Shown here: in pieces, positions 4,470-51,105 of the stretch
Layout of the letters: every line of letters begins with the position of its first letter
How positions within the stretch are numbered: the first letter of the stretch is position 1
NCBI GenBank assembly: GCA_014904985.1
Contig: MU128946.1
Coordinates: 140,109 to 204,108, forward strand
DNA: 64,000 nucleotides
DNA from: Hydnum rufescens UP504
Lineage: Eukaryota > Basidiomycota > Agaricomycetes > Cantharellales > Hydnaceae
Direction: 5' to 3'
Notes under the pieces: model-generated
Seen by the model: only the letters and a program-made list of their open reading frames with translations
Told to the model about the DNA's origin: nothing
Database searches by the model: none
Translations under genes and position numbers: made by a program

Positions 4470-7092
4470 TACCTTAAGACCCCCTCATGTGCAAGCAGAA
4501 GAATCACCCCCAGACTACTGTCATGCACAATTACGATGGTCATACCTCTACATGCATGGAACATATTGTTCCAAGAGTGGGGGCTCTGTCGACCTCCTCA
4601 ACACATATGGTGTTGATACCTAAATCTCTGGAGACAAGGGGAGAGGTCCCCTATCACTCTGACCTTCAAAGTACTGAGCTTGGCTTATTTGATGGTCATC
4701 AAGATGATGAAACTCTAGGAACTGTACATTATATTGGTGCCCCACATCCTCATAAATGTTACTGGGCTGTGGTATGTTATGAGTCAAGGTTTTGGGGCCC
4801 ATATTAAGTCTCACTAATTATTCTAGGATGAACTGCTAAAGACATGGATCCCTTATCGAGATGATTTCCTCAACACCATGCTCTGGCATGAAGGTCATGA
4901 AGATGCATTGATGACACCAGGGTGTCCTGACTGCAAGACTCCAGGAGAGAGCAGTGTATACTGCTGCAAGGAATGCTTCTTTGATGAGCTTGTTTGCAAT
5001 GTATGCTGTGTTCATCATCACACTAGACTACCCTTTCATTGTACAGAGGTGAGTTCCAATGGACTCTGTACACAATTAGTGGCATACTGACAACCAGTCA
5101 GCAATGGACAGGTCAACAATTTGAACCAGTGAGTCTTGTGAGTCTGGGCCTACAAATTCAGCTTAATCACTCCTCTGACGAATACAATGCATGTCTGAGG
5201 CCTAAGCCAGGTCCTTTGAAGTTCACCATTATTCACATCAACAGTCTCCACTACATTAATATTATCGTCTGTGGATGCTCCCAATCAAATGACTGTGGTA
5301 TCATCAACCAACTCCTTCATTGTGGGTTGTTCCCTGTAACTGTTCAACCCCCACAAACATGTGCAACATTCCAACTTTTACACCACTTCCATCTCCAGTC
5401 AGTTCAGTCCAAGGTCTCCACTATCCATTTCTATCAGGCATTGGAGAGGGAGACAGACAACTCAGGTCTCATGGATATAAAGGTATGTCATCAATCATTG
5501 TTGATCATGTTTGGTTTCTTAATGTTCTCTCTAGTTTCACTATTCATCCTTCCTCTGTATGGTTTGCATATGGAGACATCTCAAACTCTTGAAACAGGGA
5601 GGACATGGACATGACCCCTTGGGTGCAGAAGGGATGAGGAGAGGGGAGCTGGCACTTGTGTGCCCTGCCTGCCTGATTCCCAGCATGAACCTCCCTGATG
5701 GATGGTGGGAGGACCTCTCTAAATGGCATGTTGCAATTGATATGCATTCTAGATATGTTTTACCCCTCACCATAAATTTGTCTCCTCACAGTTATTTGTA
5801 CATGAAGATTACATCACAAGATGCCAACTTCCATCTAAGCCTATGCAATAAAGGCATCCATGACCCTGGTTTGGGGACCAGGTGGGCTTATTTCATTGAA
5901 GAACAAGCCTACCATGAATATCTGGCAAACTGTGGAAAACAAACAGAGGTATCGCCACCTTCCCCACTCTCAGTCCTGCATGTCTTACTAAATATCATCT
6001 CTAGACCTCAACCTGCACCAGTCTCTCAGCAATTGATCAAGCCAATTCGAAGAATTCGAGGGGACTGCAAGTCACAGGAGTTGGTGCTGTTGTCTGTGCC
6101 CACCATGGTTTTCTGCAACCAACTGGCATAGGGGACCTTCAGAAGGGTGAATGGCAAGTCTTTATGCATGTATTCACATTGTCTTGCCTAACATTTTTTC
6201 CACTGGAGATATGCCAACATGGATTATATCCTATTTTCTGGACTTCAAGGCTCAAATCTCTGGGATTTCCTCAATATGTATGACATCTGGTGCATGTACT
6301 ACAAGAATCTAAAAACACAACATGAGCAGCTTACACCTTCTCTTCAGTTCAACTTCGACACCATGACTTTCAATGGTGCTATACAAAAATTCCATCTCAA
6401 CACACATGGTGAATCATGCCAAATGAGGTTCTCTCTTAATTATTTGCCTGGAGTCAGACACACAGATGGTGATGGGATTGAGTGCGACTGGTCAAGTGTG
6501 AATGCTGCTGCCTGAAGTACAAAGGAAATGGGTGAAGGTTTGTGACACAATATGCTGGATGACATATGGGGCAATACAAACTATCAGAAGATTCTTGCCA
6601 TGGGTTAAGTTGAGCCTAACATCTTCATAAGCTTGTCCCTAACTATGGATTTCATTTACAGGTCCTCTGCTTGGGAAGAAGCTAAGAGAAGCAGTCCTCC
6701 AGGTGCAGACCCACAGTGAACAGCACGAGACTTTCTGCAAATTGATCCCCAGTAATTCCAAGGAGGAATGGACAATAATGATACAAGAGTGGGAAGAGGA
6801 CAAGAGTAAACCAGATCTGTATGTTGTAGAGACCATCTGTCTGTATCGTTATATCTCTAGGTCAGTTCTATACTAATGTTTTGTTCTTAGTTAAATCTCA
6901 AGTGGCAATAACCTTGGAGCTCATTGCTGCTGAGCATGATAGCTATTCTGCTGGTGAATTGGACATGGAAACAAGTCCAAGTGCTTTCATAAACATGGGA
7001 TTAGACATTGAAGATGCACAGTGGGTTGTCTGCAGGATTGTTCATGGCAATTTTATCCTAACATCTTACTTTTTTTAGATGTCATCTACATG
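4470..7092 (+). pseudogene. KDZ-family DDE transposase with CxC2-type cysteine cluster, decayed
   Basis: A multi-exon transposase of the Kyakuja-Dileera-Zisupton group, which moves its own DNA by cut and paste. The cysteine cluster at about 4890-5046 shows CPDC...CCKECF...CNVCCVHHH. Next come LGLQIQLNH, CGCSQ and the PQTCATF...FHLQSVQSKVS block (5140-5480), then WRHLKLLKQGGHGHDP, the DANF block (about 5820), VGAVVCAHHGF (about 6080), NMDYILFS (6219), YDIWCMYYKNL, QKFHLNTHGE...GVRHTDGDG and STKEMG (about 6515-6530). Introns I can read are 4772-4826, 5049-5101, 5482-5534, about 5950-6003 and 6154-6208. Two in-frame TGA codons around STKEMG, and one that would form across the last intron, fall where arginine (CGA) is expected. 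The frame is otherwise largely preserved, so decay is mostly point mutation. The C-terminal part (about 6661-7080) keeps the SPSAFINMGLDIED block. No terminal inverted repeats were found. Confidence 0.9.
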
Positions 7093-7157: not shown

Positions 7158-7340
7158 TGTTGGAGGGATAAATCCCTACACCATAGAATCCTCATCTGAG
7201 GCCTATTTCCCTTACAAACGAATCAATTATATGTCACTGCACTCATTTAAATTTATCATCATTGTTTATTCAAGAAATCAATTGGATTCCTACCCCTTTC
7301 CAACTCATAATATCACCTCATTCCTTTACCATGTCCCAAC
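7158..7340 (+). mobile_element. LTR family A, 5' tip only (A1)
   Basis: Starts TGTTGGAGGGATAAATCCCT, the signature start of family A, in which AGGGAT..ATCCCT forms a small hairpin. Only about 183 bases remain. They end where palindrome P1 begins, and the rest of the LTR is not found beyond P1, so this copy was truncated rather than simply split. Confidence 0.75.
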
Positions 7341-7887
7341 CTGGTCAGCCACAAATGTACATCTAGTTAGATACAATGTGCCTTGCATTTACATAGTCTA
7401 ACTAGATGTTTTTAGGCAGGGGCCCCTGGGGCTTATGGGGGTGATTTTGGACCCTGACACAGGGGCCCCTGGGGCCCCTGCCTCCCACCTTCGAGTGCAG
7501 CAGGGGAGCTGACAAATATAGTATTGGGGGGGGATCAAATACCCATGTCAGCAGAGGCAGATGGATATCTTTGGGTGGGCTTGGTGCCTTCAATGGGTGA
7601 GCAGGCTATACTGGCTTATCAGCAATTGGGATTGTTTATTTATTACTGTTTGTTCTCATTATTACACATAATTATGCATGTATTATTATTATACTATTAT
7701 ACAGCTTATCCCCCCTCCCTCCCCTGGTATTCAATGGGGGGTTGCTGTTTATATTCAGTGGGGTTGCGGGTTTTTGTTTGGCAGGGTTGCAGGTTTTTGG
7801 TCGGCAGATTGGCAGAGGGTGGATTGTGTTCACAGGGGGAGGGGGATTGGTTGGAGGTAGGTGTGGGCCATGGGGTCAGAAGAATAC

Positions 7888-9253
7888 CTAGAATAATAAA
7901 CAGTAGGTTAGTGAAAAAAAGATAAAGCCATGCAAAAGGAGCAGCCTGTGCTGCTCCTTTTGCACAATCATACTTCTAGCTTGAAATACATACCTTAAAA
8001 AATTACCACACCCACTTTGGTGGGTGTGGCTTGTGTGGGTTCTTGGCATTGTGTCGTTTCATGTCTTCATTGGGTGTGGTTTTTGTCATGTGTGGGGGTC
8101 TTGTTCGGAATGAGGTTGTTTGTGGGCCATTGTTTGCAGGATTCAAGTCTGGGGGGAGGGGGATTGATGGGGGCCATGGGGACCTCAAATAATGAACATT
8201 AGTAAAAAAAAGAAAAGGTACACAAAAGGAGCAGCCTGTGCTGCTCCTTTTGCATGGTTATACTTGTAGCTTGAAATACTTACCTTACAAATTACCACAC
8301 CCTCCAAAGTGGGTGTGGCTCATGTGGGTTCTTGGTGCTGGGTTGTTTTGTGTCTCCATTGGGTTTGGTTTTTGCCATGTGGGGGGTCTTGTTTGGCACA
8401 GGGTCTTTCATGGGTCCTGCTTGGTGGGCTGTTGCTTTAGGGGGGGATTCGTTTGGCAGTCTCCATTTTGCCATTCATTCTCATTCAGTGGCTCTTCATT
8501 TCATTGGTGGAGGTTCAGGCGAAAACCTAGAAAAATTGAGCATTAGTTAGACATCAAAACCAGCACAAAAAGAGCAGCACTCACTGCTCTTTTTGTGCTG
8601 TTGGGGGTACAAACAATACTTACCCTATATAGAACCACACACCTGCTATGGTGGGTGTGTGGTTCATTGGGTGCATTTTTGGTGGCAGTCCACTGTGGTT
8701 TTCAGTGTCATTTCATGTTTTTGTTTGGTGGGTTTGTTGGTGTGCGGGTTATTGTTTGGCGGGTGTCCTTTCTATTCGTTCTTGTATGGCACATCTTCGT
8801 TCCAGTTCAGACAATCACCTAGGATAATAGAAACATATTAGTTAAAAATTAAAACAAGAACTGATGCAAAAAGAGCAGCATTTGCTGCTCTTTTTGCACT
8901 GTTGGGGTATATCATGTTACTTACTTTATATGGAACTGCACACCTGCTTTGAGGGGGGTGTGGTTCATATTGCCATTCAATCCTCATGTTCTCATTGTTT
9001 ATTGCATCTTCAGTTGGTGTGTTTTTGGCTGGTGTTTTCATTTGGTGTATTTTCAGTTGGCATATAGCCATTTGGGCCCTGACTGTCCAGGCCCTTGCCA
9101 TCTGGCCAGCTTCCATCTGGTACCTTGGAGCAGACCATGACCTAAAATAATAAAAGATATATTAGTAAAAATAATTCAAAGCAGCACAAAAAGAGCAGCT
9201 TTTGGTGCTCTTTGTGCACCATTGTACCTACTAATGAAAAAAAAAAACTCACC
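7888..9253 (-). other. Left-arm array of five intron-like stem-loop modules
   Basis: Read on the minus strand, the intron-like units lie at 9142-9253, 8819-8924, 8527-8623, 8184-8283 and 7888-7993 (97-112 bases). Each starts GTGAGT, GTAAGT or GTATGT, usually after AAG or AGG. Each holds a central stem-loop (CAAAAAGAGCAG...CTGCTCTTTTTG, or CAAAAGGAGCAG...CTGCTCCTTTTG in the two outermost), then CTAAY or ACTAA and a T-rich run ending in TAG or GAG. Just upstream of each donor is a second hairpin of the form CCACACACCC...GGGTGTGTGG. Sequence between modules is low-complexity and gives no convincing protein. Confidence 0.8.
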
Positions 9254-9608
9254 TAATGGCCACACACCCACAGTGGTGGGTGTGTGGTCCTGTCTTCCTT
9301 ATTTGGGTGGCCACCTTATTGGTGGTGGCGTAGTTGTGATGCAACTGAACACCGGCAATTGCTGGCATCCAAAAAGTGCCCAAGTGCCTGGCACCATGAG
9401 TATAGTGTGAATTAGTAGCAAGTAAATAGATGTAGAATAAATAATAAATAATAAATATCTTCCCCAAAAAAAATGAACACCATCACAATCAGTCAGAGTT
9501 CAAAGAGCATGATATGATACATTGCAAAGTGGATTGGGTGATTTCTATGGTTCAGAACTGGCCCAAATCTAGATATACTGGTGGAATACATGAATCCTAT
9601 GTGGGCGA

Positions 9609-10975
9609 TGTTGGAGGGATAAAACCCTACTACATAGATTCCGCTTCAGGACCCAACTACCTCCTCAAATGAATCCAATTTATTCAACTCCAATCCTTCA
9701 AATACCTATCATTCCTTTGATTGCCATATGACCTGGATTTCAATTCTCCAAGACCCATTTTATTTCTCTTTCCTCCACCTTGTACATGAGACATTTATTT
9801 GTCCATCTCCAAGTCCTCAACAGACTACCTCAAATTGTAGTTACTTCAAGCCCAGCCAACTGTGGCTCAGGCAATTCAACTTGCCCTGTTTGTTTGGTAC
9901 ACAATCCATTATGCATTGCTCATTGCCTCGGCAGGGATATACGAGGCCCAATTATATAATCAAGATTGCCTAATCCTTTGGATCCAACTTGCAGATTAGT
10001 CACATGTTAAATAGGGGCTATTCCCATACTCTCAAGGTGTATTTCATGAATATCTCCCTCATTTTTGATCAGATCGGCTCGAAAGATAGCGCCCAGAAAG
10101 CTACGATTAATACCTATCCAACGGTACCACATACGCGTTTATCGGATGCGAACTGCATCCTCCAGGTCGATTTTACCTCATGTTCCACACTATCCTTCAG
10201 TATTTCATGAATATCTCCACCAGTTTTGATCTGATTCGTTAGTAACGACCACCCCTGGAAAGACGCTAAAAATCCGCATCAAATGGTACTGAGGGAAAAA
10301 CAAGCAGACTAGAACTCGGCTTTCTGTAATTTAGTCTCCTCATGTCTCATTTCACTTTTACCTCCACTTTTCTGATTACTAAAGGCAATTATGGTTCCGG
10401 CACCCTATGTCTGATGGAGGGTACGTCTAGGGCGACCAGTTCCACCTTTCCCCAAGGGATTCTGTTCAGTAGGAGAGGAGGAATACCTTGGTTAAGCCAT
10501 ATTCCCCTATTCTGACTTGTTAATTGAATATCTCCTTCAGTTTTGAAGCTTTTGACTCAATCTCTTTTTCATCATTTTAGCCTTAACTCCACCTTTCTGC
10601 TGATTTCCATTGAATTATTCCAAGATGTATATTAAGTGCAGGGGATGCAAATTTTGATTGATTTCCCCCTCCTCCTCAGTCTTTGAAGTCTTGAAGGACA
10701 GCTGTTGGTATCAGGGTGACTTCCAGAATACACCTAGTATTGTTCACACTTTGGATAGGCTCTCAAGAGGAGAACCATCAGTGTGGTTTCTGAATTAAAA
10801 TCCTTCATTCATTCATTGTTAGAGCAAGCCTGCCCTAGCAAGACAATTTCCCAACCTCAAGGCCTTTCATTCAATTGGACCTTAACCTGCAGATTGACTC
10901 CATGGCCCTCTCCTTTTGTCCTTGATTCAACAATCTTGGACTGTGGCATAGTCTCTTAGGAGATTCCTGCCGACA
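9609..10975 (+). mobile_element. Solo LTR of family A (A2) nested in P1
   Basis: A 1367-base unit starting TGTTGGAGGGATAAAACCCT and ending CTGCCGACA, flanked by GCGA on both sides (9605-9608 and 10976-10979). Removing it restores the inner arm of P1 (GTGGGCGATTAATTATT against the reversed right arm), which confirms it as an insertion. It carries two or more copies of the ~150-base internal module shared with LTR family F (about 10040-10290). CpG is still frequent from 10070 to 10450, so this copy is young relative to its surroundings. I call it an LTR from its TG...CA ends and the absence of coding sequence; no internal region of this family is seen anywhere in the window. Confidence 0.85.
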
Positions 10976-11021
10976 GCGATTAATTATTTTGGATGTTCTC
11001 CGCATTTTTCAATTTTTCCTG

Positions 11022-11051
11022 CCTTCAATTCCCGAAATAGGGAATTGAAGG
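11022..11051. other. Central hairpin of P1
   Basis: CCTTCAATTCCC, loop GAAATA, then GGGAATTGAAGG. The pairing continues outward, with mismatches, through GAAAAATTGAAAAATG and AATAATTAAT. This is the symmetry axis of the 6.65-kb element, between bases 11036 and 11037. Confidence 0.9.
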
Positions 11052-11639
11052 TGCGAAAAATTGAAAAATGCAGAGAATGTCCAAAATAATTAATCACCCA
11101 CATAGGATTCATGTATTCCACCAGTATATCTATATTTGGGCCAGTTCTGAACCATAGAAATCACCCAATCCACTTTGCAATGTATCATATCATGCCTCTT
11201 TGAACTCTGACTGATTGTGATGGTGTTCTTCATTTTTTTTGGGGAAGATATTTATTATTTATTATTTATTCTACATCTATTTACTTGCTACTAATTCACA
11301 CTATACTCATGGCACCAGGCACTTGGGTCCTTTTTGGATGCTGGCAATTGCTGGTGTTGAGTTGTGTTCTTCCTCACAACTACACAACCACCACCACCCA
11401 ATAAGGTGGCCACCCAGATAAGGAAGACATGACCACACACCCGCTGCCATGGGTGTGTGGTCATTAGGTGAGTTTTCTTTTATGAGTAGATACAACAGCA
11501 CAAAAAGAGCAGTGAAAGCTGCTCTTTTTGCACTGCTTTGAATCATTTTACTAACACATCTTTTATTATTTTAGATCATGGCCTGGTCCCAGGCACAGTG
11601 ATAACTCACCAAATGATGAGGCCCCAAATGGCAAGGGCC

Positions 11640-12060
11640 CAAACAGCAATGTGACACACCAATGCACCCAATGACAATGCAATAACATGCCAATGTGATA
11701 TGCCAACATGCCAAACACCAACATGCCAAACACCAACATGCCAAACACCAACATGCCAAACACCAACATGCCAAACAGCAACATGCCAACACCAACATGA
11801 CATGCCAACACGCTGAATGCCACACACCGAACACCAACACGACATGCCAATGTGCTGAACACCAACACACCAAACACCAACACAACACACCAACACACTG
11901 AATGCCAATCTGAATGCCAACACAACATGCCAATGCACCAAACAGCAATGCAACATGCCAACATGACACGCCAATGTGACACATGCCAACACAACACACC
12001 AACGCACCAATGAGTGCCCAAATGTGACACATGCCAACACAACACACAAACACACCCAAT
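11640..12060. repeat. 15-bp microsatellite-like array within P1
   Basis: Near-perfect units of CCAAACACCAACATG at about 11705-11790, degenerating outward to 12060 into CAACACACCAACACG-like units. The multiple-of-three period leaves long open frames on both strands (HQHAK on plus, VFGML on minus). I regard those as repeat artefacts, not proteins. Confidence 0.8.
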
Positions 12061-12214
12061 GAGTGGCCCAAGGAACCATACACCCACTTCAGGTGTGTGG
12101 CATTTATATAAGGTGAGTCCCCCCAGTAGATACAGCCACGCAAAAAAGCAGCAAAAGCAGCTCTTTTGCACTGCATTCACTTCTTTACTGACCCACTTTT
12201 TTCTATTTAGGTCT

Positions 12215-12833
12215 ATGGTTGCCACAGTCAGGTTTTGGTCAGGCTTTGCCCAATTTGGGCAAAATCTAAACCTGACCAGGTTCCAAAATCATCCATGAGG
12301 GCAAAACCTGAACCTGGTTTAAACCTGAAACCTGAGGTATGAGGGAAGCCAACATTTTCAGGGGGTTCTACAAAATATCTGCACCCTCTGCTCAAGTATC
12401 TGCCTCTGCCACTCCCTTTACATCCTGCTTTGGATTCACATCTCCTTCCTACCCCCCTTTCACTTCAATTTATTGCTCACACCTCTTCTGGAGATGGTAT
12501 TTAGTCACTACATTCCGTCATGTGACTTGTGACCTGTGTCATTTGATGGCCAAGTCATGTGACTTCTGACTCCAGAACTATAGTCACATGTGTAAATTGC
12601 CAGATTTGGTGCCAGAATAGTGGTCAATTTACATGGAATGGAACCTACACCCTACCTTTCAGGTTCAGGTTTCAACCTGGTTTCAGACTGGTTTTTGGAT
12701 TCAGGGCAAGGGCAAAACCTGAACCTGACCTGAAGAAAATGAAATGAAACCTGACCCCAATGGAACCTGACCTGGGTCAGGTTCAGGTTTAAACTCAGGC
12801 TCCACAGGTTTAAACCTGAGCTGCAGCATCCAT
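12215..12833. mobile_element. TIR element G1 (non-autonomous DNA transposon candidate)
   Basis: A 619-base element with imperfect inverted ends (ATGGTTGCCACAGTCAGGTT and the reverse complement of AACCTGAGCTGCAGCATCCAT), flanked by an exact 10-base duplication ATTTAGGTCT (12205-12214 and 12834-12843). The interior is rich in CAGGTTTAAACCTG palindromes and codes for nothing recognisable. A second copy lies at 44699-45324 and a partial copy near 48060-48206. A 9-10-base duplication fits Mutator-like elements among known superfamilies, but no transposase is present to confirm this. Confidence 0.8.
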
Positions 12834-13124
12834 ATTTAGGTCTTTGCCTTTTACACAAATGAATACCAATGCAAAAACCCCCCACAATGTCACGTATTGA
12901 AACCTGAGCAGTAATACATGGCAAACTGCAGTATGAACACCCATGCAAGAGCCTGTATGACCAAAACAAAATACCACACACCCGCCACCATGGGTGTGTG
13001 GTACTACAAGATAAGTCTTGTTTTATTTTATTTTTATTTTTATGGTGCAAAGAAGAGCAGTGTAAGCTGCTCTTCTTGCACTGCTTTTATTTTTAACTAA
13101 CAACCTCTTATTTTTCTAGATCTT

Positions 13125-13330
13125 GGACTGGAACCCCCATGAACCCCTGACCCCAAACCTGCTGCCCAAAACCCTGCAACTTCAAACCCAAGCGAAACCC
13201 TGCAACCCCAAATCCAAGCAAAACCCCATGACCCCAAACCCAAGCAAAACCCTGTGACCCCAAAGCCACTGAATAAAGGCCCACAACTCCAAAGCCACTG
13301 AATGAAGGCCCACAAGCCAAACCCCATGAA
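13125..13330. repeat. Low-complexity ~24-26-bp repeats between P1 modules
   Basis: Successive phrases of AACCCCAAACCCAAGCAAAA and AAGCCACTGAATGAAGGCCC. They fill the spacer between the third and fourth right-arm modules. The minus-strand open frames across them are composition artefacts. Confidence 0.65.
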
Positions 13331-13992
13331 CAAAAACATGACAACACACCCAATGAGTGGCCACACGAACTGCACACCCGCTATGGCAGGGGTGTGGCTC
13401 TATACAAGGTGAGTCCCCCAGTGTATACACTTGTGCAAAAAGAGCAGCAAAAGCTGCTCTTTTTGCTGCTCTTTTTGTGCTGGTTTTACTACTTAACTGA
13501 CATATTATCTTTGATTCTAGATTGTGCCACAGACACCACCCGAGCCCCAAACCAACAATGAAAACCTCTGCACCCACAAGTATTGGCCCCTGAATGGAAC
13601 CCCATGTCACCCTAACAGATAACCAGGCACAAGCCTGTACAGACATCCACATGACTGGCACACTGTGAGGTACACACACCCCAGCACAGGTGTGGTACTA
13701 AAATGTATGTTCCCCCCCCTCCCCAATGATGCTAATCATGCAAGAAGAGCAGCCTGTGGCTGCTCTTCTTGGGTGCATGGGTGAGCCTGTGGATGTAAAT
13801 AATCATATAATAATAATAACAATAATAAATATATAAATAAATAATCCTATAGCTGGGGCCCCAGCAGCCCCTGGCCTGCTGGCTGATTGTATTGCAGGGG
13901 CCCCTGGGGGCCCCCTGGTAAGACCATCTAGTTAGATATAATAAATGCAAGGCTCATTATATCTAATATGATGCAGAAAAGTGGCTGACCAG

Positions 13993-14960
13993 CCTGTACT
14001 CGATAAGCTCATCTGGATTTGTGATTTCCCATGACATAATCTTCCTTTGCCTTTGTAGGGCCATTGACATGGTAGGATCATCATCATAGTAATTCCCAAC
14101 AGCCTCTTGAGTGATTGGCTCAGTGTTTTCATGGAAATGGTACAGCTGAAGCCACTTCCAGGCTATTGGCCTTCACAAGATGACTCCATCTGGTTGTTGG
14201 ATGACATAGGCTCCAGATGGCCTTCTCTGCACTATAATGAAAGGCCTGAACCATTTTGCTGTTCCCTTTGAACCATGCTGATTATATAATGCTTTGTTAT
14301 ACACAATAACCCACTCTCATGGATGGTAATCACCAGTGGCCACTTGTGCAGCATGTTTCCTATTGAACACATTGGCAGCCTTCAAGCAGGACTTTTCAAT
14401 GGCCTGGACCACATCATCAAGTGATTTGTCATGCTTGCTATCTGCAGAATCCATAAGGTGAGAAGCTCCTCTGATGACTTGACAGAAGGCCAGTCAAGTG
14501 AGTGAAAGGTTTTATCTTTTACATCATAGGGCATTAACAGATGTTGACCATAGAGCAGGTAATAGGGCATGTATCTGGTATTTCACTTGACAGTAACCCA
14601 GTTGGCCCATACTGTGTAGCCTAGATAGTAAGGCGAATCATAGATATGAATTCCATGTATTTTCCATATGGCATTAATCCAAACCACATGTCCCCATTCC
14701 AATTTCCCATTCACTTGCAGATTATAAGGTGAAATTTGTATGACTGGCACCTTGTATTTGTCCATGAGCAGTTGAACAGCAAGCACCCTTGAATTCAGAT
14801 CTGTTGTCTATCATTAGTTGAAAGAAGAGCATCTGAAAGTGCCCCCTGAGGATCATAGTACTCTAGGCACAATGTGAAAACACTGCTGAGCCTATCCATA
14901 ATACCAGTGATCATTGAGATGAGACCTCCCCAGACCCTTTCCCTGGCTCTACAATGACTG
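13993..14960 (-). pseudogene. Gypsy-3: integrase fragment of a Ty3/gypsy polyprotein
   Basis: On the minus strand a DNRSEFKG block (about 14780-14800, matching the DNG.EF catalytic motif of gypsy integrases) is followed by VPVIQISPYNLQVNGKLEWGH (the third catalytic residue region) and WINAIWK. Then come PYYLLYGQHLLMPYDVKDKT and a C-terminal stretch to the P1 boundary. The same domain order occurs in gypsy-4 (29387-29935), so the two are relatives. Stops and frame changes are frequent. The 5' part of the element, its LTRs and its reverse transcriptase are absent. It abuts P1 at 13992 and runs into the FunK1 remnant near 14960. Confidence 0.8.
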
Positions 14961-14989: not shown

Positions 14990-17270
14990 ATTGTAACTTG
15001 TGACTACACTCTTGTTGGCCAGGGAACCATTGTGGTTGAAGGCACACCCAATGATCCTGATCTAAAAGGCCAGGATCTCATGGTCAAGATACACTGGCCC
15101 TCTACAGACTGAGTGAGTGAAGCCAATATCATCAATGCAACATGCACCTGTGCAGCAAAGAACAACCCACCATCCCTTACCACACCCTGACTGTTGTAAG
15201 TGGGAAATGAAGGGAGGAATCTAGCCACAGTCCATGATACAGAATTGAGAACAAAGAGAGGGGATCACAGGATCAATCTAAGTGTTCAGGCCCTTGGAAA
15301 GGAGCAGTCTTTGGATGGGAAAATGTACTGCCTTGATAGAGACTATCTAACCAGTGAATGAAGGGATCAGGTCACACCCTAAGTCCTCCTGTTGAGAACC
15401 CATCAAAAGTGTGATCAGTAGTGGTTGTGTTGTGGAGCTTACCCTTAGCCCAGTGAGAGTTTCTCAAGCCTTCAAAACTGGGGGTGAGGGGAAAGACAAT
15501 GGAAATTCACATCTCCTCCACTTAATATATATCACAGAAAGGTGCTATGGTGAGCAGTGGAAAGGTGGAGTTAAGGTGAAAATGATGAAAAAGCAATCAA
15601 GGCAAAAGCTTTAAAACTGAAGGAGATATTCAATAATTAAGTCAGAATAAGGGAATATGGCTTAACCAAGTTATTATTCCTCTCCTACTGGGAAGAACCC
15701 CTTGGAAAATGGTGGAACTGGTTTCCCTAGATGTACCCCCCATCAGACACAGGGTGTCAGAACCATAATTGCCTTTAGTAATCAGAAAGGTGGAGGTAAA
15801 CATGAAATGAGTCATGGGGAGACTAAATTACAGAGACCTGAGTTCTAATCCATTTGTTTTTTCCTTGGTACTATTTGATGTGGGGCTTTAGCATCTCTCC
15901 AGGCGTGGTTGCAGCTAATGAATTGGATCAAGGCTGGTGGAGATATTTTCAAAATACTGAAGGATAGTATGGAACACAAGGTAAAATTGACTTGGAGAGT
16001 GCAGTTTGTGTCCAATACACATGTGTTTGGTATTGTTGGATAGGTATTGATGACAGCTTCTGGGAGCTATCATTCCAAGTCAATATAAACAAAACTGACA
16101 AAGATATTTTGCATTTACTCCTTGAGAGTGTTGCAATAACCCTTATTTGACATGTGACTAATCCACAAGTTGGATCCAAAGGATTAGGCAATCTTGATTA
16201 TATAATTGGAACTCCTATATTTCCCTTAAGGCAATGGCACAGAACAATGGATTGAGTGTCAATGAAGAGGGCAAGTTGAATTGCCATAGCCACAATTGGC
16301 TGGACCTGAGGTAAATACAAATTCAGGTGGTCTGTTGAAGACCTGGATATGGACAAAAAATGTCTTGTATACAAGGTGAAGGAAAAATGAGTGGGCCACA
16401 GTTTTGAGGGAGGGGAATCCATGCCATTTAATAATAAAAGGAATAACAAGCAATGGAGGAGGCAGAATTGAATATATTGGATTTGTTTGAGGAGGTAGTA
16501 GGGTGATGATGGAAATTCTATGCAGTGGGGGTTTATCCCTCCAACACTGTACTTCACACACAAGATCACTCAATGACTGCTGCCTCTTTTTATGAGGCCA
16601 GAACCTGGACCCTGAGGGTGATTATCATGGAGCACTTCCACTCAAAAGACAAGATGAGTACATTAGATGAATGTGTCAAAGTCATGATTGATGTTGTTGA
16701 ATGTAGGCATCTTGACATCATGGTACATCCTTACACTCCATCCAGGCTACCAGGCACTTTCTAAAGATGCCAAGACTCTTCATCATGATATTAGCCAAAA
16801 TAACAGTATGCTCCAACATGATAGAGGGGGCCAAGTGGATGGTGTCCTCATCAACTTTGACCTTGCAACTATCATGGACCCCACCAACATATTGTTTCAT
16901 AGTAGTCCCAACTTGTATGAAATCAACAGGACTTGGCCATTCATGACAAGAGATTGCCTTGTGATGCAAGGTCAAGTACACTGGGAGTGACACAATCTAT
17001 AATTGTTCTTCTGGCAATTACCATATTTATTGGTCATTATCATGAAGGGAAACTAATTAATGAACCTCCATTCAAGGAATGGTATGAGTACAACTGTAAT
17101 GGAAGCACTCTCACCACCCCCAAGGGGGCCTTCCTGGCCACAGTGGACTCCTTCTGTCCTACTCAACCTTTCAAAGATCTGCAACATACATGGGTACACT
17201 CACTAAGGCTGCTGTTCTTGGATGGAATCATGGTACCTGGGTTAAGCTAGCAGGTGCTGGGAAGGAAAAG
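14990..17270 (+). pseudogene. FunK1-type fungal protein kinase remnant, split by a solo LTR
   Basis: A fungal-specific kinase in two parts. The N-lobe (about 14995-15190) reads GQGTIVVEGT, LKGQDLMVKIHW and VSEANIINATC, with the family's glycine loop and lysine strand. After the LTR (15195-16546) the C-lobe continues: VIIMEHFHSKDKMSTLDECV (about 16630-16680), the catalytic loop LHHDISQNNSML (about 16775; the family HRDIS..N, with HRD now HHD), GVLINFDLATI (about 16840; the DFDL metal-binding motif), GHYHEGKLINEPPFKEW (about 17035) and FKDLQHTWVHSLRLLFLDG (about 17170). Frames shift at 16761 and near 16987 and stops occur, so it is inactive. FunK1 genes are greatly expanded in Agaricomycetes, which supports the taxonomic guess. 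The true 5' start is not visible. Confidence 0.85.
15195..16546 (-). mobile_element. Solo LTR of family A (A3) inside the kinase gene
   Basis: A 1352-base unit on the minus strand, from TGTTGGAGGGATAAACCCCC (reading down from 16546) to CACTTACA at 15195. Both flanks are CTGT (15191-15194 and 16547-16550). Joining across it links the two kinase parts, so it inserted into the kinase gene. It is more CpG-depleted than A2 or A6, so probably older. Confidence 0.9.
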
Positions 17271-18934: not shown

Positions 18935-20505
18935 TGTGGAATATAAAAACATCCAGTATCAGAAAATGCAAAATCACACCACTTCCAGCCTTTGGATGAT
19001 CACATGACCAATTACAAAATTAATTATGGCTATGTGCAGAAAATGAATTCATTCTATAACTCTATCAGTTTTGATCAGAGATATACACCCATATAATGCT
19101 TGGAAAGCTATGATTCACACCTTTCTAATGGTACCAAACACAAGTCAAATGGACCAAAACTGCACTCTCCAGACTGATTTTACTATCAAAATCTGGAATT
19201 TCCAGTATAAAATGAATTTCTCTATCAGTCCAGGTCCAATCATCTTGGAACCACCATGCCTAGAAAGATGTTAAGAATCCACATCAAATGGTACTGAGCA
19301 TGCAAAGAACAGATCAAAACTGCACTCTACAGAACAATATTACTATCAGAATCAACACCCATTAGTATTTTACAAATTTCTCTGTCAGGTCACATCTGAT
19401 CTGCTTGGACCCACTGCAACCAGAAAGCTATTAAAAATCCACATTGAATAGTACTGAGCATGCCTATTATGGATACAAACTGCTGTCTCTGCATTGAACC
19501 CCACCACATGCACTTGTTCCTATTATTAACCAGTAACAAAAACATCTTAACCACTGGACTACAAACAAATTAATCTCCAAGAACTCGGAAATATCCTTTG
19601 ATTTCATCTCTCATTGCCACAAATAGCTTCTAGAACTTCACAGATAAGAAAGATAATGCCTCCTTGACAACCCTTTTGTCCTGTTTATGAGTGACTCACC
19701 TTCCTTGACAACCCTTTTGTTCTGTTTAATGACTCACCTTCCTTGCAACCACTTTATGAATGACTCACCTATCATGCAACCACCTTATGAATGACTCACC
19801 CTCCTTGACAACCCTAGTGTTCTCACCTATGACTCACATATGACTCACCTAGGAGTGAGTCATATTCTTTAAACACAGCCACCTTCAGAAAGGTATAAAA
19901 GCTGGTAGATTTTCCTGTATCCCCCCATCTCCTCACTACTGGGAATATACTACTGTCTACAAATCTGCTTGCATCTGAAGAGAGTACTGATCTGAAGCCA
20001 TCTGGAGCTAAGTCATATACAAGGTAGACTAAGTCACTGGAAGCCCTCTACACAAAATATTGAGCCAAGGATAGTTGCAGGACCTAAGGTTAGAGTTGCT
20101 GGACATCCAAGGAAAGGTGAGTAATAACAAAGTCAAGTCAGAAGAAGAAAGAAACACATTGACACACTGAATCAAGCTTAAAATAGTCTACAACCCTCTT
20201 AGAATCTGCATTTTGACCAGGAGGACACAAATAGGCACACACAAATATCAATAAACAGTCCAACACAACACATATAAGCCTTTCATAAGCATCTCATGAT
20301 ATATCATTGACTATAGCTAGTCCATACTACAATCTTATCCACCACTGAATACCACATACAACTTGTTAGAGAGTGATCAACTGTCAGAGTGAACCAGCCC
20401 ATTGAATAACAACAGAAATACAGTCTCCCATCTACACACTGGCTGAACCAGAGTTTGATTTAACAGTCATTGGAGCTCCCAATCTTTCTTCTATACTGTA
20501 ATAGG
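18935..20505 (+). mobile_element. LTR family F, nearly complete (F1)
   Basis: Starts TGTGGAATATAAAAACATCC and matches the reversed 5' LTR of gypsy-4 (35324-36889) throughout, ending at TTCTTCTATACTG, about 15 bases short of that LTR's end. The first ~530 bases hold three tandem ~150-base modules (about 19040-19190, 19200-19345 and 19350-19500). A GAGTGACTCACC/GTGAGTCAT-rich array occupies about 19685-19865, and a TATA-like TATAAAAG lies at about 19895. The 3' end is cut where an inverted partial copy begins. Confidence 0.85.
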
Positions 20506-25087: not shown

Positions 25088-28004
25088 CTACCACCTGTTT
25101 GAGTTGATGTTGGAATCCTCAGTTGCTGGATTAGATGGAAGATCTGTGAGCTTGTATGGGGCTGCTGGGTCTTTCTTGAATTCAGCCCATTTGTTGTCTA
25201 GGAGGTTGTATTGGATGTTGCGTATGTGTCTAGTGTAGTGAAGGACTGCTCGATCATCAGGCACAATTGTTAGAAAGGAGGCATCCATTTCATGGAGAGA
25301 TGATGCAAGCTGGGATATTGTGGGAGCAATACAACAATGGAGGGCAAAGGCTGCAGAAGGTGTGTCTAACCTACAGTATGATGTTGTCATATAATATTGG
25401 CTGCATGGATAAAGATATGGGATAGTCTGTCAGTCTGTGATACATGATGGAATGCAGAAGGATAGAGAAGGTGATCATGCCAGTTAGCAATGCATTCTTC
25501 ATCACAGGCTAACTTGATGTTGCAATTGTCGAGTATCTTGGATTTTGTTCTGAGGTTGGCCTCTTGCTGATGAAGAGTGGACGAGAGAAGTGCAAGGGGT
25601 GGCATGAGAGAATTGATTTGCATGTTATGATTGGCAACCATGCAACTTAGCTGGGCTAGAAGATCTGCATGTTGCTTTATGTTGTAAGCAGGAAATGAAG
25701 GGAGGAATCCAGCCACAGTCCACAATATGGAATTGAGAATGAAAAGAGGGGACCACAGGATCAATCTGAATGTTGAGGCTCAAAGGAAGGAAGGTCTTTT
25801 GGTATAGAAATCTAATGCTGTAAGCAACACCTGCTCAAGCAATAGAACAAAGAATGAATCTGAGTCACAATACCACACCCTAAGGCTCTCCTCCTGAGGC
25901 CCTAGACAAAGTGCAGTAGTCTTGGTGGAATTCACCCAAGGAACCAGTGGCAATACATCAGTGCCACAAAACTGGGGATGGGGGAAGACTATGGAAATTC
26001 ACATCTCCTGCACTTAATATACATCACAAAAATATGCTATGGTAACCAGAAGAAAGGTGGGATTAAGGCAAAAATGATGAAAAAGAAATCAATTCAAAAG
26101 CTTTAAAACTGAAGGAGATATTCCAAAATCAAGTCAGAATAGGGGAATATGGCTTAACCAAGCTATTCCTCCTCTCCTACTGAACAAATCCCTTGGGGAA
26201 AGGTGGAACTGGTTGTCCTAGATGTACCCTTCATTGGATATAGAAGGGGCAGAGAATAATTGCCATTAATAATCAAAAAGCAGAGGCAATAATGGAATGA
26301 GACATGGGGGAGTTAAATTGTAGAGGGCCGAGTTCCTATCTGATCGTTTTTCCCTTGGTACCGTTGGATGCAGACTGTCGACAGCTTTCTAGGTGTGCTT
26401 GTTGCAAATGAATTGGATCAAAACTGATGGAGAAATTCAAAAAATACTGAAGGAAAATATGAAACACATAGTAAAATTGATCTGGAATGTGCAGTTTTGA
26501 CTCGTTCAACTTGGGTTTTGTATCATCTAAAAGGTGTGAATTGTAGCTTTCTGGGCACTATCTTGCTGAGTCGATCCAATCAAAACTGATGGAGATATTT
26601 GACATTTACTCCTTGAGAGCCCCACCTTAGCCCCTATTTATCATGTGACAGGTCCATGAGTCAGAATCAAGGCCCAGGTAGTCCATTGTGTTACATAATC
26701 ACAATTCATTAGAGTTGCCCTTGAGGCAACAGGAAGCATGTATCAGAAGTGGAGACTGATTGAAGGTCAAACAAAGCAAGCAAGTTGAATTGCTATTGCC
26801 ACATTGAGGTATGGCATAAAAAGGTGGAATTTAGGGTGGCCTGTTGAAGTGCCATGGATGAACAATAAATTGGCTTGTGTACAATTGAAGGAATGGCATG
26901 GATTCATGGGTTTTAGATGTATGGGATTCAGGCTTGTTCTCAAATGAATGATGGCATGGGAATTGACATCTGGATTGACATAGAAAATGGTTCATTTAAT
27001 TGAAAAATCATCCTCAGATGGGGTTTGCATGTAGTAGGGATTGGTCCCTCCAACAATGTCTTCATTACACTTGTCTTCATATTCTTGCTGGACTTCATCT
27101 AGTCACTGTGCAGTGTTGTGCTTGTGATCTATGATTGCTTGTCTGTATGAAGGCCATGCACAGTATGAGTTGGCATTTTTTCTGGGTCATGGGATACTGA
27201 TTGGTCACTTATAAAAGTTGCAAGGAGCATGAGGAGGGAGTTTTGATGAATAAGATAGATGGGATGAGAGGTGGGATGATGGATGAGAAGAGTTTGTCAA
27301 GTTCAAAGTGAGTGAATTTGTGGAGGAGTGGAATATCTCACATAGTTGCTGAGCAGTTGGAGACCTAGTTTGACTTATGGTTTCTTTCTTGGGAGTCCAA
27401 TTCATCTTGAGTTCTTGTTGTAACATGAATAGGTCACCTACAGCCATATCAGGAGGGAATGATTTGAGAGGAATTGCAGTTTGAACAGATGATGGCAGTC
27501 ATGAGTCGAAAGCATTCCAGGTTTCAGAGCTTTTTGGTTGATCTTCCACATCATTTTGACTTTGTTTAGCCTTTTGTTCAGCTATGAGATGGTCAGGGAA
27601 TGATATGGTGGACTGAACTGGTCTGGCTCATGGATCAGTGGTCTGATGGTGTAATGTGAGATGTGGGTCAAGTGCAAATGGACATTGGAGCCTACAGGTT
27701 GGCTGGGGTTAGACTGTTCATCGTTATTGTATATTTTTACAATTTGATTCAAAGATGAATTGACAGAATCAGGCCAGAAGCTCTGTGTTGTGTTAGTATT
27801 ATATAGATGTGTTGATGTAGATGTTTGTACCTCATCCAACTTGTCTTTCTCCTTTGGTGAAGAGCTAAAGAAGATTTCTTCCTCAAGTTTGAGTTCAGTT
27901 AGCTGCATAGGAGGCACAGGTGAAGGGGTGGGTGTGTTGATGTATTGGAATGTATAGTCAGGAGTCGAGGTTGCAGTAAGGTCGAGGGAGGCAGAGTTGG
28001 ACAT
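25088..28004 (-). pseudogene. Unrecognised gene remnant split by a solo LTR
   Basis: Minus-strand coding blocks run in order. A Ser/Thr-rich N-terminal block (28004-27582, starting MSNSASLDLTATSTPDYTFQ) is followed by a block at 27447-27205 (MAVGDLFMLQQELKMNWTPK). A segment reading LDEVQQEYEDKCNED ends at the LTR and continues after it as IKQHADLLAQL (25680-25387, helical, ending DRLSHIFIHAANI). A last block (25390-25088) reads IRNIQYNLLDNKWAEFKKDP. The sequence joins in frame across the LTR (25683-27055) once the ATGT duplication is removed. I do not recognise the family. The region at 46800-47490 looks like a paralogue: GQTQADKFSCIFTLAADI and LKLYENEWMELKDD are similar to the last two blocks and in the same order. 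Confidence 0.55.
25683..27055 (-). mobile_element. Solo LTR of family A (A4)
   Basis: A 1373-base unit, minus strand, from TGTTGGAGGGACCAATCCCT (down from 27055) to TGCTTACA at 25683. Flanks are ATGT on both sides (25679-25682 and 27056-27059). It interrupts a minus-strand coding block that is continuous without it. Confidence 0.92.
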
Positions 28005-29386: not shown

Positions 29387-30000
29387 TCAGTCCACCCACA
29401 TACATGAATAAATATATTTTGACCATTGGCTTGGATATCCTTTACTAGTGATGAATAATGAATTAATCCAGGTCCTATGACCATGTTCAATCATTCCATT
29501 TGCTGCCAGGTGATATGGGGTGGCTTGGACAATTGGTACATTATATTCATCTGCCATAGTTTGGACTAATCTGTCAAACTCCACACCATTGTCTGTAGTG
29601 ATTTGTAATACACAGCCAAACTGGCACATGATGTCTTCAAATAGAAACCAGGCAATGTTCTTACTTGAGGCCTTATGTAACATTTTTGCTTCCAGCCATC
29701 CAGAGAGATCATCCTGGAGATCAATGATGTATTTGAATCTGTTAGACACTGGCATGTGAACCATGTCCATATTAAATTTATGTAATATTGTATTAACATA
29801 GGTTGGGCTCAATGTGATTTTTGGGTGGGTCACAGATCTTTGCTGGCACTCATGGCATGTCCAGCAATACCAAGCCACATAGGATAACATATTTGGCCAG
29901 TAAAATCTGTCTGATAATTTTTTGAACACCAGGTCTCATCCGTGGTGGCCAGATTTGTCATGTGCTGCCTTGCATGAGTGGGGTTGATCATCTGGGTTTT
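29387..30000 (-). pseudogene. Gypsy-4 integrase
   Basis: A degenerate HHCC zinc region (HDKSGHHG upstream, then CWTCHECQ) precedes the catalytic core. The first acidic residue lies in LQDDLSGW, the second in TDNGVEFD and the third in AANGMIEHGH. The core is 180 codons open (29929-29387) with a stop between the HH pair and the CC pair. It would insert the cDNA copy into host DNA in the nucleus; this copy lacks its flanking frame. Confidence 0.85.
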
Positions 30001-39460: not shown

Positions 39461-41769
39461 TACTGCCAGGTCGAGTACTTCTCGTCCTGGTTTTTTGGGG
39501 TGTGCGCAATGAAAGTCCATTACTGCTTCATGAGCATTGGCGAGTTCTGCTGCTGGGAGCCAGCTAAACTCATCGTTGGTGTGCTCATAGCCAGACCATC
39601 ATATGCGATAGACTAAGCTGTTACTGTGACAGCAACAATCGATCTTGCTGTCGATGATTTTGGCAATTTAGTATTCAAGTTCGCCATCGATTTTGACAGG
39701 TGGGGGGGTGGTTGGGTGCGATTGGGGAAGGGATCAGGGTGAATGGGCTCAAGTAGTCGCACATGGAAGATGTTGTGGATTTGATTCATGGCACGAGGGA
39801 GACCAAGGCGATATGCATGTGTTGAAACTTTCTCAGTGACTGGGAAGGGACCAAGTTTCTTGTGGTCCAGTTTCTTTGATGGTCGCTTTGTTTTGATGTT
39901 GTGCATGTCGAGCCATACCTGATCGCCAATGTTGAGAGTGGGGAAAGGAGGTTGTGCTCCAGCTACTTGCTGTTCATTTTGTTGTCATGTGATCGCTGAG
40001 TTGGTCACAAACATAATTGTGGATGTTGTGAAGGTCAAGTGTGGCTTGGTTGGCCTCAGTTGAAGGTACTGCTTTGATATTGATCTCGAGGTTGGGGTGA
40101 AAGCCTTTATTCACAAAGAAGGGTGTCACGTTTGTCGCGGTGTAAGCAAGAGAAAATGGGGGAATCTCTGCCACAGTCCGCGATATGGAATCGAGAACGA
40201 AGAATGGGGCCACCAAAATAATCCGAATGTTCAGGTCCGAGTGTAGGAGGGTCTTTAGGATAGAAGATAATCCGCTGTCAGCAGTAGTTGCCCAAGCAGA
40301 TGAATAAAAGGGAAATTATGCCACAAATCCCACACTCCAAGGTCCTAGTCTTGTGGCCTTAGACAAAGTGTAGTAGTAGCAATGTCCTCAGATGGAATTC
40401 GCCCAGGAATCCAGCAGCAATACTTCAGTGCTTCAGACTGGGGAGGGGGAAGACAATGGAATTTTCAACACAATTCGCTTAATATACAACCCGGCTATGA
40501 GATCAAATATCCGATGGAAGCAGGGAGATAGGGGAAATATGTAGAAAAAGGAATCAAGTCAAAAGCTTCAAAACTGACAGAGATATTCAATTTACAAGTC
40601 TGGGGATAGGATAGAGCATAAAATGACTATTTCTCCTTCCCTTTTTGGACAGATTCCCTTGAGGAATGGTGGAATGAGTCGTCCTGAACGTCCTATCCTT
40701 CGGATATAAGGCTGCCAGACAATATTCGATATTTGAAAATTGGAAGGGGGAATGATGTTCTCCTGAGACAAGGGGGAAATTCGTATGTAGAACACCGAGT
40801 TCTTCTTTGTTCGTGACGCCCTTCATACCGCTGGATGGGAATTTTCAATACCTTTCTAGGCGCGGTCATTTCATGCAAATCCGATCAAAACTGACGGAGA
40901 AATTCGAAAAATACATGTTCTTATTATGAATGAGCAGGTGAAATCGTTCCAGAAGCCTCAGTTCTGATCCGATGAACACGTAATCGATATCATTCGATAG
41001 GTATTGATCACAGCTTTCAGGGCGCTATATTTACGAGTCGATCGGATACGAATTGACTTCGAAAAGCGGAAAATACTCCTTAAGAGCATGGATTCCATAG
41101 TAAAATCGTTCTAGAACGTGCAGTTTCATCGGATTGACTCGTACTTGGTATCGTCGGATAGGTATGAATCGTATCTTTCTGGGCGCTACTTTCCTGAGCC
41201 GATCCGATCAAAACTGACGGAGAAATTTAATGAATACTCCTTGAGAGTGCCACATTTGCCCCTATTTGATTATGTAATGCATCCGCGAGTAGGAATGAAG
41301 GCCCAGGTGTGTAATCCATCGTATTACATAATCACCATTTGTTAGGATCGCCCTTAAGGCAGCAAGATCCGTATGAGCAGATTGAAGGAGAATTCAAGAC
41401 AATATACAGAAGGGCAAGTTGAATTGCCAGGTCCACCATATCATGGCTTATGGTAGGGCATAAATGAATACAGTCCCTGTGGCCTGTTGAAGACCCCAGG
41501 AGATTGACTCGTGTACAAGGAAATGAGCATTCCATTTACATCTTTTCAGGCATATGGAATTCATGCTCATCCATGAACAGACGAAAGGCTTGATATTGGA
41601 ACGACATATTGGTACATTTTTAATTCGTTCATCGGAAAATTCGACGCTGAAATGGAACTCTATGTGGTAGGGATTTTTCCCTCCAACAGTGGAGTGCTTG
41701 GTGTTGTTGTATGCAAACTCTGCAAGGGGGAGAAGTAGCGCCCAGTTGTCTTGCAGGTAGTCAGCCTAG
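39461..41769 (-). pseudogene. Gypsy-1 pol: integrase C-terminus and chromodomain, interrupted
   Basis: Minus-strand reading: [16 protein letters not shown] then KHS (41769-41693), a break at the nested LTR (41688-40141), then TNVTPFFVNKGFHPNLEI (about 40133-40080). The SH3-like tail follows: RPSKKLDHKKLGPFPV, AYRLGLPRAM and IHNIFHVRLLEPIHP (39906-39720). A chromodomain-like segment comes last: SKID, then NSLVYRMIWL, EHTNDEFSWLPAAELANAHE and PKKPGREVLDLAV-stop (about 39680-39461), with frame changes. The YNN...HS...P.F family signature is rebuilt when the LTR and one GCGG/GTGG copy are removed. Chromodomains of this class steer integration to marked chromatin. Confidence 0.88.
40141..41688 (-). 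mobile_element. Solo LTR of family A (A6) nested in gypsy-1 integrase
   Basis: A 1548-base unit, from TGTTGGAGGGAAAAATCCCT (down from 41688) to TTGCTTACA at 40141. Flanks are GCGG (40137-40140) and GTGG (41689-41692), identical except for one C-to-T at a CpG. It has three ~150-base modules at about 41090-41250, 40930-41080 and 40780-40920 carrying TCCGTCAGTTTTGATCGGAT and GCGCCCAGAAAG. CpG-rich, so the youngest or best-preserved family-A copy here. Confidence 0.92.
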
Positions 41770-48059: not shown

Positions 48060-48206
48060 GATGTCAGGTAACTTGGGTGAAACCTGAACCTAACCTAACA
48101 TAGGTTTTCTTCAGGTTAGGTTCAGGTTTTGCCAATTGAGGAGTTTTGGGTTTTGATTAAGTTCAGGTTTGCCCAGATGGGGCCTGAACCTGACTTTGGC
48201 AACCAT
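48060..48206 (-). mobile_element. TIR element G3, fragment
   Basis: CAGGTTAGGTTCAGGTTTTG and CCTGAACCTGACTTTGGC, ending GGCAACCAT, which is the reversed start of G1 and G2. Only one end is certain. The other end and most of the interior are missing or degenerate. Confidence 0.6.
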
Positions 48207-48215
48207 AGTGTTCAC

Positions 48216-48887: not shown

Positions 48888-48896
48888 AGTGTTCAC

Positions 48897-51040: not shown

Positions 51041-51105
51041 GGTTATGGGCCCATGCGCCCTGTAGCATATACCACCTTCTAAGCTAGTACCTGCCACCCG
51101 CCACC

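What the first reader, a model, noticed from the sequence alone, without database searches (positions are those of the whole stretch)
7888..13772. Ten intron-like modules share a stem-loop whose two arms vary together
Seen in the sequence: all ten modules have a donor-like start (one mutated to AT), a central stem-loop and a CTAAY tract; nine end in an acceptor-like AG. The stem changes in matched pairs: CAAAAAGAGCAG with CTGCTCTTTTTG, CAAAAGGAGCAG with CTGCTCCTTTTG, CAAGAAGAGCAG with CTGCTCTTCTTG. A second hairpin just before the donor also varies in matched fashion (CCACACACCC/GGGTGTGTGG, CCACACCCAC/GTGGGTGTGG). Sequence between modules is not conserved. Covarying hairpins inside and beside splice sites suggest selection on a folded RNA or DNA, such as introner-like spread or a structured non-coding transcript. 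I know of no described family with this layout.
Basis: partly seen in the sequence, partly recalled or inferred. Interest (0 to 1): 0.9.

Follow-up and report, generated by a model that had tools for sequence, protein, structure and literature searches.

The report
Palindromic fungal transposon carrying intron arrays
The ten modules are intron-like units inside one copy of an abundant, apparently non-coding jumping gene of a fungus, whose two mirror-image arms each look like a gene built of structured introns and unusually U-poor exons; why a mobile element would keep such introns is a new and testable question.

Summary
The ten modules form two divergent five-module arms (minus strand 7880-9292, plus strand 11430-13790) of one copy of a repeated DNA transposon, window 7337-13996. 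I estimate about 6,000 core hairpins genome-wide (10,756 strand hits, reversed control 4), in arrays in the listed part. Of 20 facing end pairs checked, 14 have an exact 8-bp target-site duplication and 2 more have one mismatch; the window copy has none. One module-bearing copy (L018) has both ends matching the mapped end of KDZ-transposase elements and an exact 8-bp duplication. So this is most likely a non-autonomous, fold-back KDZ-type transposon. Each arm resembles a non-coding gene: T-rich segment, U-poor exons (9.9% T), introns with GTRAGT, CTRAY and AG. Both stems covary, and 213 of 213 modules found with hairpin 2 masked still form it (24 of 213 when shuffled). Introner-like spread is not supported; selection on folded RNA is likely but not proven. 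Best mechanism, inferred: hairpins and U-poor exons keep the transcript well spliced, which may protect the element from nuclear surveillance. No RNA data were available.

The parts
7337..13996 (.). Whole transposon copy, ends CAACCTGGTCAGCCA.. and ..TGGCTGACCAGCCTG; no target-site duplication in this copy
   Evidence: related ends genome-wide; TSD in other copies
7337..7500 (+). Left terminal repeat with GGGGCCCC-rich subterminal part
13820..13996 (-). Right terminal repeat (79% to the left one over a 95-column match)
9137..9292 (-). Module L1: exon-end hairpin, donor, intron hairpin, branch-like site, acceptor
8810..8966 (-). Module L2
8520..8665 (-). Module L3
8175..8321 (-). Module L4
7880..8032 (-). 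Module L5
11430..11580 (+). Module R1 (predicted intron 11468-11574)
12072..12216 (+). Module R2
12972..13126 (+). Module R3, AT instead of GT at the donor
13364..13527 (+). Module R4, with one arm of the intron stem repeated in tandem
13667..13790 (+). Module R5, incomplete: no branch-like site or acceptor after the stem
10978..11095 (.). Central palindrome of the element (118 bp, 86% to its own reverse complement here)
11093..11596 (+). Conserved region leading into the right arm (inferred promoter and first exon); inverted copy at 9120-9609, 87%
9120..9609 (-). Conserved region leading into the left arm
9610..10975 (.). Unrelated repeat that has split the centre; related copies at 15383-16546, 25712-26649 and in part 40524-41267
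12214..12834 (.). Second inserted repeat, in the exon after module R2; copy at 44698-45326

Best explanation
The feature is one copy of a high-copy, non-autonomous, fold-back DNA transposon, very probably moved by KDZ-type transposases. From a central palindrome two outward-facing, non-coding transcription units run to the two ends. Each well-preserved unit has about four to seven spliceosomal introns that carry a hairpin of about 18 bp between donor and branch site, and each donor is preceded by a second hairpin at the exon end. Shown: mobility (8-bp duplications), divergent palindromic layout, no open reading frame above shuffled controls, conserved splice signals, covarying stems, U-poor exons. 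Inferred: the arms are transcribed and spliced; the intron hairpin shortens the effective intron from about 105 to 65 nt; and together with U-poor exons it keeps splicing efficient, which stabilises the transcript or spares the locus from surveillance of intronless or badly spliced transcripts, keeping it open to a transposase supplied in trans.
For: Element and mobility: ends at 7337 and 13996; 115 and 102 genome hits to two end patterns; 14 of 20 exact 8-bp duplications plus 2 with one mismatch, and exact ones in L025 and L018. Layout: minus-strand then plus-strand arrays in 19 of 20 fetched regions by my reading. A palindromic copy of 2,852 bp, arms 95% alike. KDZ link: three KDZ copies stop at the same base; the module-bearing copy L018 2007-6933 matches that terminus at both ends (71% over 168 and 79% over 90 columns) and has an exact 8-bp duplication; other arrays have ends matching its outer 74 bp at 73-76%; at least 154 KDZ matches in the genome. 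Splice signals on 150 aligned modules: GT 136, CTRAY 144 (14 when shuffled), AG 127; median intron 105 nt, 65 without the hairpin, from the 114 with both GT and AG. Structure; with hairpin 2 masked, 213 of 213 modules have at least 9 of 13 Watson-Crick pairs (24 of 213 when the stretch is shuffled) and 195 have at least 12 (0 shuffled), with compensatory variants at pairs 4, 5, 8, 10, 12 and single cases elsewhere. Exons: T 0.099, A 0.358, C 0.338; 132 of 137 cores below 0.2 T, against 0.363 T in introns (exons outside 60-450 nt were dropped). Arms: T peak of 0.40-0.46 at 200-300 nt from the centre, then U-poor, in 10 of 10 arms profiled. Stop-free stretches: 15 of 34 arms above and 19 below the shuffle mean, none above its shuffle maximum.
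Against: No RNA data, so transcription and splicing are unproven. The protective role is borrowed from other systems. G.U and A.C mismatches are equal at the two CpG pairs of hairpin 2 (54 and 57) and in hairpin 1 over pairs 1-13 (102 and 98); at the A-U pairs of hairpin 1 A.C even exceeds G.U (32 and 18), so resident copies seem to decay neutrally and selection would act on source copies only. GNRA loops fall to 10 of 35 among modules with intact CpG pairs. The window copy, L011, L023 and L042 have no duplication, nor do 4 of the 20. The commonest end types (CAACTCAG.., CAGCCTGG..) resemble the KDZ end only in about the outer 15 bp. The other end and the TSD of the KDZ element were not found.
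Confidence: 0.62

Rival explanations
1. The introns are the product: the arms are host genes, like snoRNA host genes, whose exons are throw-away and whose introns release a small structured RNA (hairpin 2).
Against: The exonic hairpin 1 is conserved as well; the stem is short for a usual Dicer substrate (recalled); Rfam gave only sub-threshold matches on modules, such as mir-15 and SpF25 at 8540-8615; U-depletion of exons is not explained.
Confidence: 0.2
2. The palindromes work at the DNA level, as cruciforms or paired binding sites of a transposase or silencing protein, or their arms are kept alike by arm-to-arm copying; the splice-like motifs are incidental.
For: Both stems are DNA palindromes, the whole element is palindromic, and pairs such as G-C to C-G change on both sides without a wobble intermediate, as arm-to-arm copying would give. 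Mismatch asymmetry for RNA is weak: G.U 13 and A.C 3 at A-U pairs of hairpin 2 in a rough count with 27 of 213 rows out of register, but the reverse in hairpin 1 (18 and 32).
Against: Ordered donor, branch and acceptor motifs in the same orientation outward from the centre; U-poor exons on the outward strand of both arms; the module profile has no hit in the 2,342 bp of KDZ copy held in L088.
Confidence: 0.2
3. Introner-like element: each module is itself mobile and spreads into genes.
For: Carries both splice sites; thousands of copies.
Against: Duplications flank the whole element, not modules. The 53 hairpins listed on C1 lie in 8 clusters of two or more; of the 4 listed on C2 one (7610) stands alone. 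Modules are nearest to the same-order module of another locus in 90 of 106 cases.
Confidence: 0.03
4. Remnant of a captured or transposon protein gene whose introns are still recognisable.
For: Multi-exon look; U-poor exons also have few stop codons, which all contain T. Fifteen of 34 arms have a stop-free stretch longer than the mean of their shuffles.
Against: None of 34 arms exceeds the maximum of its 30 shuffles and 19 of 34 are below the mean.
Confidence: 0.05

Closest known systems
KDZ (Kyakuja-Dileera-Zisupton) DNA transposons of Agaricomycetes
   Same: 5'-CA..TG-3' ends, 8-bp target-site duplication as reported for Zisupton, end similarity to KDZ copies of this genome
   Different: No transposase found in the element; long mirror-image arms; intron arrays. 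Kyakuja families are reported with 7-bp TSDs and no TIRs (PMC12730594, passages and section 19 read)
Fold-back (FB, Galileo-type) transposons (recalled)
   Same: Long inverted arms made of internally repeated units
   Different: Here the repeated unit is an exon hairpin plus an intron, and the arms look like transcription units
Introners
   Same: Repeated intron carrying its own splice sites; some have TIR and TSD (PMC9860276, passages)
   Different: Here introns are passengers of a non-coding element, not inserted one by one in genes
snoRNA host genes (recalled)
   Same: Unconserved non-coding exons with conserved structured introns
   Different: Mobile, palindromic; the hairpin at the exon end is conserved too
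Stwintrons of Hypoxylaceae
   Same: Sequence-similar fungal introns in many copies (listing and abstract starts only)
   Different: A nested intron defines them; none was noted here, but it was not searched for

Membership tests
KDZ-type non-autonomous DNA transposon | Target-site duplication of fixed length (8 bp for Zisupton) | tested here: met
   Of 20 end pairs: 14 exact, 2 with one mismatch, 4 none. Outside that set: L018 and L025 exact; window, L011, L023 and L042 none. In all 16 exact of 26
KDZ-type non-autonomous DNA transposon | Ends shared with an element that encodes the transposase | tested here: met
   L018 2007-6933, with 8 modules of score 50 or more inside, matches the KDZ terminus at both ends; that terminus is fixed by three KDZ copies. 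Only one copy was tested at both ends; the commonest end types agree mainly in the outermost bases, and the other KDZ end was not found
KDZ-type non-autonomous DNA transposon | Mobilised in trans by the KDZ transposase | not testable with these tools
   needs an excision assay
Fold-back transposon | Long, internally repeated inverted arms making up most of the element | tested here: met
   L042 arms 95% over 1,428 columns; L013 93% over 1,227; other copies have diverged arms
Spliceosomal (U2-type) intron | Donor, branch-like site and acceptor at normal spacing | tested here: met
   GT 136, CTRAY 144, AG 127 of 150 aligned modules; the 150 were chosen by profile score and a stem motif
Spliceosomal (U2-type) intron | Removal from a transcript | not testable with these tools
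   no RNA-seq available
Introner | Single introns inserted at unrelated places in genes | tested here: not met
   arrays within one element, duplications at its ends; host genes were not annotated, and only the first 100 rows were listed
Known structured RNA family | Match at an Rfam gathering score | tested here: not met
   17 matches with E up to 0.5 in 7300-14000, all below gathering; 11 of 17 on the central palindrome

The most novel reading that the evidence does not exclude
A class of DNA transposon that makes no protein but carries thousands of purpose-built, structured introns in U-depleted transcripts so as to pass as a well-spliced host gene and escape nuclear RNA surveillance or RNA-triggered silencing.
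Probability: 0.35. Interest if true: 0.92.

Novelty: new variant of a known kind. Interest (0 to 1): 0.75.

Why it matters
Cut-and-paste transposons need transcripts only to make their proteins. A protein-less element that nevertheless preserves splice sites, two covarying hairpins per intron and U-poor exons implies selection on its RNA. In human cells HUSH silences A-rich intronless transcripts and introns protect from it (PMC8770142, passages); in Cryptococcus removing introns lowers mRNA, cumulatively with intron number (PMC3744415, abstract). This family would offer a natural, high-copy test of whether mobile elements evolve introns against surveillance, and many natural variants for studying how hairpins next to splice sites affect splicing.

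Tried and rejected
Coding origin: 34 arms of 17 loci were spliced in silico and compared with 30 composition shuffles each; 15 exceed the shuffle mean, none the shuffle maximum. The comparison is crude: donors were chosen by a simple score, and CpG decay creates TGA.

hAT as the mover: hAT domains are present (90 matches); their ends were not examined.

Relatives elsewhere: a scan of viral contigs with the stem found 5 stretches; the module profile matches them only over the hairpin, at 21 to 24.5 bits, so I take them for unrelated hairpins. No other fungal genome could be searched, and the organism was not identified; a protein search on a copia gag gave no organism.

Tetraloops: GNRA 70 of 150 and UNCG 26 of 150 are far above base-composition chance (2 to 3% and 1.4%), but the copies are related and the excess is weaker for GNRA in modules with intact CpG pairs (10 of 35; UNCG 12 of 44), so I use it only as support.

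Stem-core invariance: it was exaggerated in the 150-module alignment because my first selection required the core motif. A profile with hairpin 2 masked removed that bias: 223 of 259 full-length hits keep GAGCAG..CTGCTC exactly; 213 modules passed the score cut of 50 used. In one search the stem position was chosen for best pairing, so I added a shuffled control.

The pair counts of hairpin 1 include a 14th column pair that is no pair (75 A.C); the figures given here leave it out.

Not every facing end pair was checked for a duplication; one on C16, for example, was left out.

Literature: the layout was not found in the searches; this covers only the open-licence library.
Full report
What is there. 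Five lie on the minus strand between 7880 and 9292 and five on the plus strand between 11430 and 13790, pointing away from each other. Read outward, each has a hairpin at an exon end, a donor, a second hairpin, a CTRAY branch-like site and AG; the last plus-strand module lacks the branch-like site and acceptor after its stem.

It is a family. The window lies in a 63.2-Mb assembly of 539 contigs. A DNA search with one module gave 57 matches, 40 of 2,131 first-look candidates being scored. A strict core pattern gave 5,364 forward and 5,392 reverse matches, with 3 and 1 for the reversed control. Many hairpins match on both strands: 57 distinct places account for the 100 listed rows, which suggests about 6,000 hairpins. 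This is an estimate from contig C1 and the start of C2. The 53 places on C1 lie in eight clusters of two or more; of the four listed on C2 one stands alone.

Layout. Twenty regions of 6 to 10 kb around good matches were fetched. By my reading 19 of 20 show arrays on the minus strand, a gap, then arrays on the plus strand; L009 shows one arm only, and L026 and L027 have interrupted centres. Seventeen of the 20 also match the window's central palindrome. In the window this centre is split by another repeat at 9609-10976, and a further repeat sits at 12214-12834. Modules are most like the module of the same order at another locus, 90 of 106 against about 24 for random labels (106 of the 150 aligned modules could be given an order). 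So arrays are inherited as units.

Mobility. The window copy ends at 7337 (CAACCTGGTCAGCCA) and 13996 (TGGCTGACCAGCCTG). Two end patterns have 115 and 102 genome matches. I took 20 facing end pairs, 3.4 to 7.7 kb apart, from the listed rows: 14 have an exact 8-bp duplication, 2 differ by one base, 4 have none. L025 (GCATGCAT) and L018 (CATACTAC) have exact ones; the window copy, L011, L023 and L042 have none. L042 is a palindromic copy of 2,852 bp with arms 95% alike.

Which transposase. The genome has at least 154 matches to the KDZ transposase domain and 90 to the hAT dimerisation domain. In L088 a broken KDZ gene is followed by a terminus CAGGCTGGTCAACCA; two other KDZ copies stop at exactly the same base. 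The module-bearing element L018 2007-6933 matches this terminus at its left end (71% over 168 columns, E 8e-19) and right end (79% over 90 columns, E 4e-16), and is flanked by an exact 8-bp duplication. The outermost 74 bp also match ends beside arrays in L016, L019, L020, L021 and L026 at 73 to 76%, E 9e-8 to 5e-5. The commonest module-element ends share with it mainly the outermost bases. The other end of that KDZ element was not reached. Zisupton is reported with 8-bp and Kyakuja with 7-bp duplications (PMC12730594, passages and section 19). A KDZ origin is thus well supported, though not shown by experiment. In the window a CxC2 domain, which accompanies KDZ transposases, is at 5027-5614.

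A gene-like but non-coding arm. From the centre outward the T content rises to 0.40-0.46 at 200-300 nt and is then mostly low (0.01 to 0.25 per 100 nt) over the following exons, in the 10 arms profiled. The 137 exon cores have A 0.358, C 0.338, G 0.205, T 0.099, and 132 of them are below 0.2 T; introns have T 0.363 (exons shorter than 60 or longer than 450 nt were dropped). The low-T strand is the outward strand in both arms, so this is not a strand-neutral DNA effect. Stop-free stretches do not exceed the shuffle maximum in any of 34 arms; 15 are above and 19 below the shuffle mean. Near the ends the outward strand carries AATAAA-rich sequence (seen in L041 and L042).

Splice signals and structure. 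In 150 aligned modules the donor is GT in 136 and AT in 9, CTRAY is found in 144 (14 after shuffling), and AG in 127; in the 114 with both GT and AG the median intron is 105 nt, or 65 nt without hairpin 2. Both hairpins covary: 17 of 31 pairs changed on both sides, 182 cells against 81.6 in shuffles, no shuffle of 500 as high. Related sequences can beat such shuffles without structure, and the structure was drawn from these sequences, so I also searched with hairpin 2 masked: there are 259 full-length hits; 213 pass the score cut, and all 213 have a stem with at least 9 of 13 Watson-Crick pairs, against 24 of 213 when the stretch is shuffled; 195 against 0 reach 12. Fully paired variants occur at pairs 4, 5, 8, 10 and 12 in several modules and at pairs 3, 11-12 and 13 in single ones. 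Rfam gave no match at gathering score among 17 with E up to 0.5.

Results against an RNA reading. The CpG pairs of hairpin 2 show as many A.C as G.U mismatches (57 and 54), and so does hairpin 1 as a whole (98 and 102 over pairs 1-13); at A-U pairs of hairpin 1 A.C exceeds G.U, 32 to 18. At A-U pairs of hairpin 2 G.U exceeds A.C, 13 to 3, in a rough count. So old copies seem to decay without selection, and arm-to-arm copying at the DNA level could make paired changes too.

How it probably works. The shown parts are a mobile palindrome with two outward, intron-rich, non-coding units. The inferred part is that they are transcribed and spliced, that the hairpins bring donor and branch site to a normal distance and the U-poor exons hide few false sites, and that being well spliced stabilises the RNA or keeps the locus from being silenced. 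Precedents: introns protect transgenes from HUSH, which prefers A-rich transcripts, in human cells (PMC8770142, passages), and intron removal lowers mRNA in the basidiomycete Cryptococcus (PMC3744415, abstract). A link between stalled spliceosomes and RNAi in Cryptococcus is recalled; only listings were seen. None of this has been tested here.

Novelty. I found no such element in the paper searches. As a mobile element it is a variant of a known kind; its internal architecture seems new.

Noticed in passing
window 53590-57792: A 4.2-kb near-perfect palindrome (96.8% to its own reverse complement), apparently a second fold-back element of another family.
   Followed up: partly
window 48185-48921: A further palindrome of about 740 bp, 91% to its own reverse complement.
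   Followed up: no
window 9609-10976, 15192-16546, 25680-26649, 40141-41367: A dispersed repeat, one copy of which split the centre of the element described here.
   Followed up: no
window 5027-5614: CxC2 cysteine cluster domain (E 1.3e-33), associated with KDZ transposases, left of the element.
   Followed up: partly
window 51088-51936: Copia-type gag with zinc knuckle.
   Followed up: no
window 12972-13126; L015 4127-4301, L016 5319-5488, L026 2542-2708: These four modules have AT instead of GT at the donor and share the AAGAAGAGCAG stem variant, so this AT donor may be inherited rather than a fresh mutation.
   Followed up: partly
window 41869-43730: Long tandem array with overlapping open frames of a short repeated peptide.
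   Followed up: no
window 18935-20495 and 36889-35340: Two inverted copies of a 1.55-kb sequence, 91% alike; an integrase fragment lies between them at 29387-29935.
   Followed up: no
L088 (contig C142): A broken KDZ transposon has inserted into an arm of a module-bearing element, whose last module and end follow directly.
   Followed up: partly
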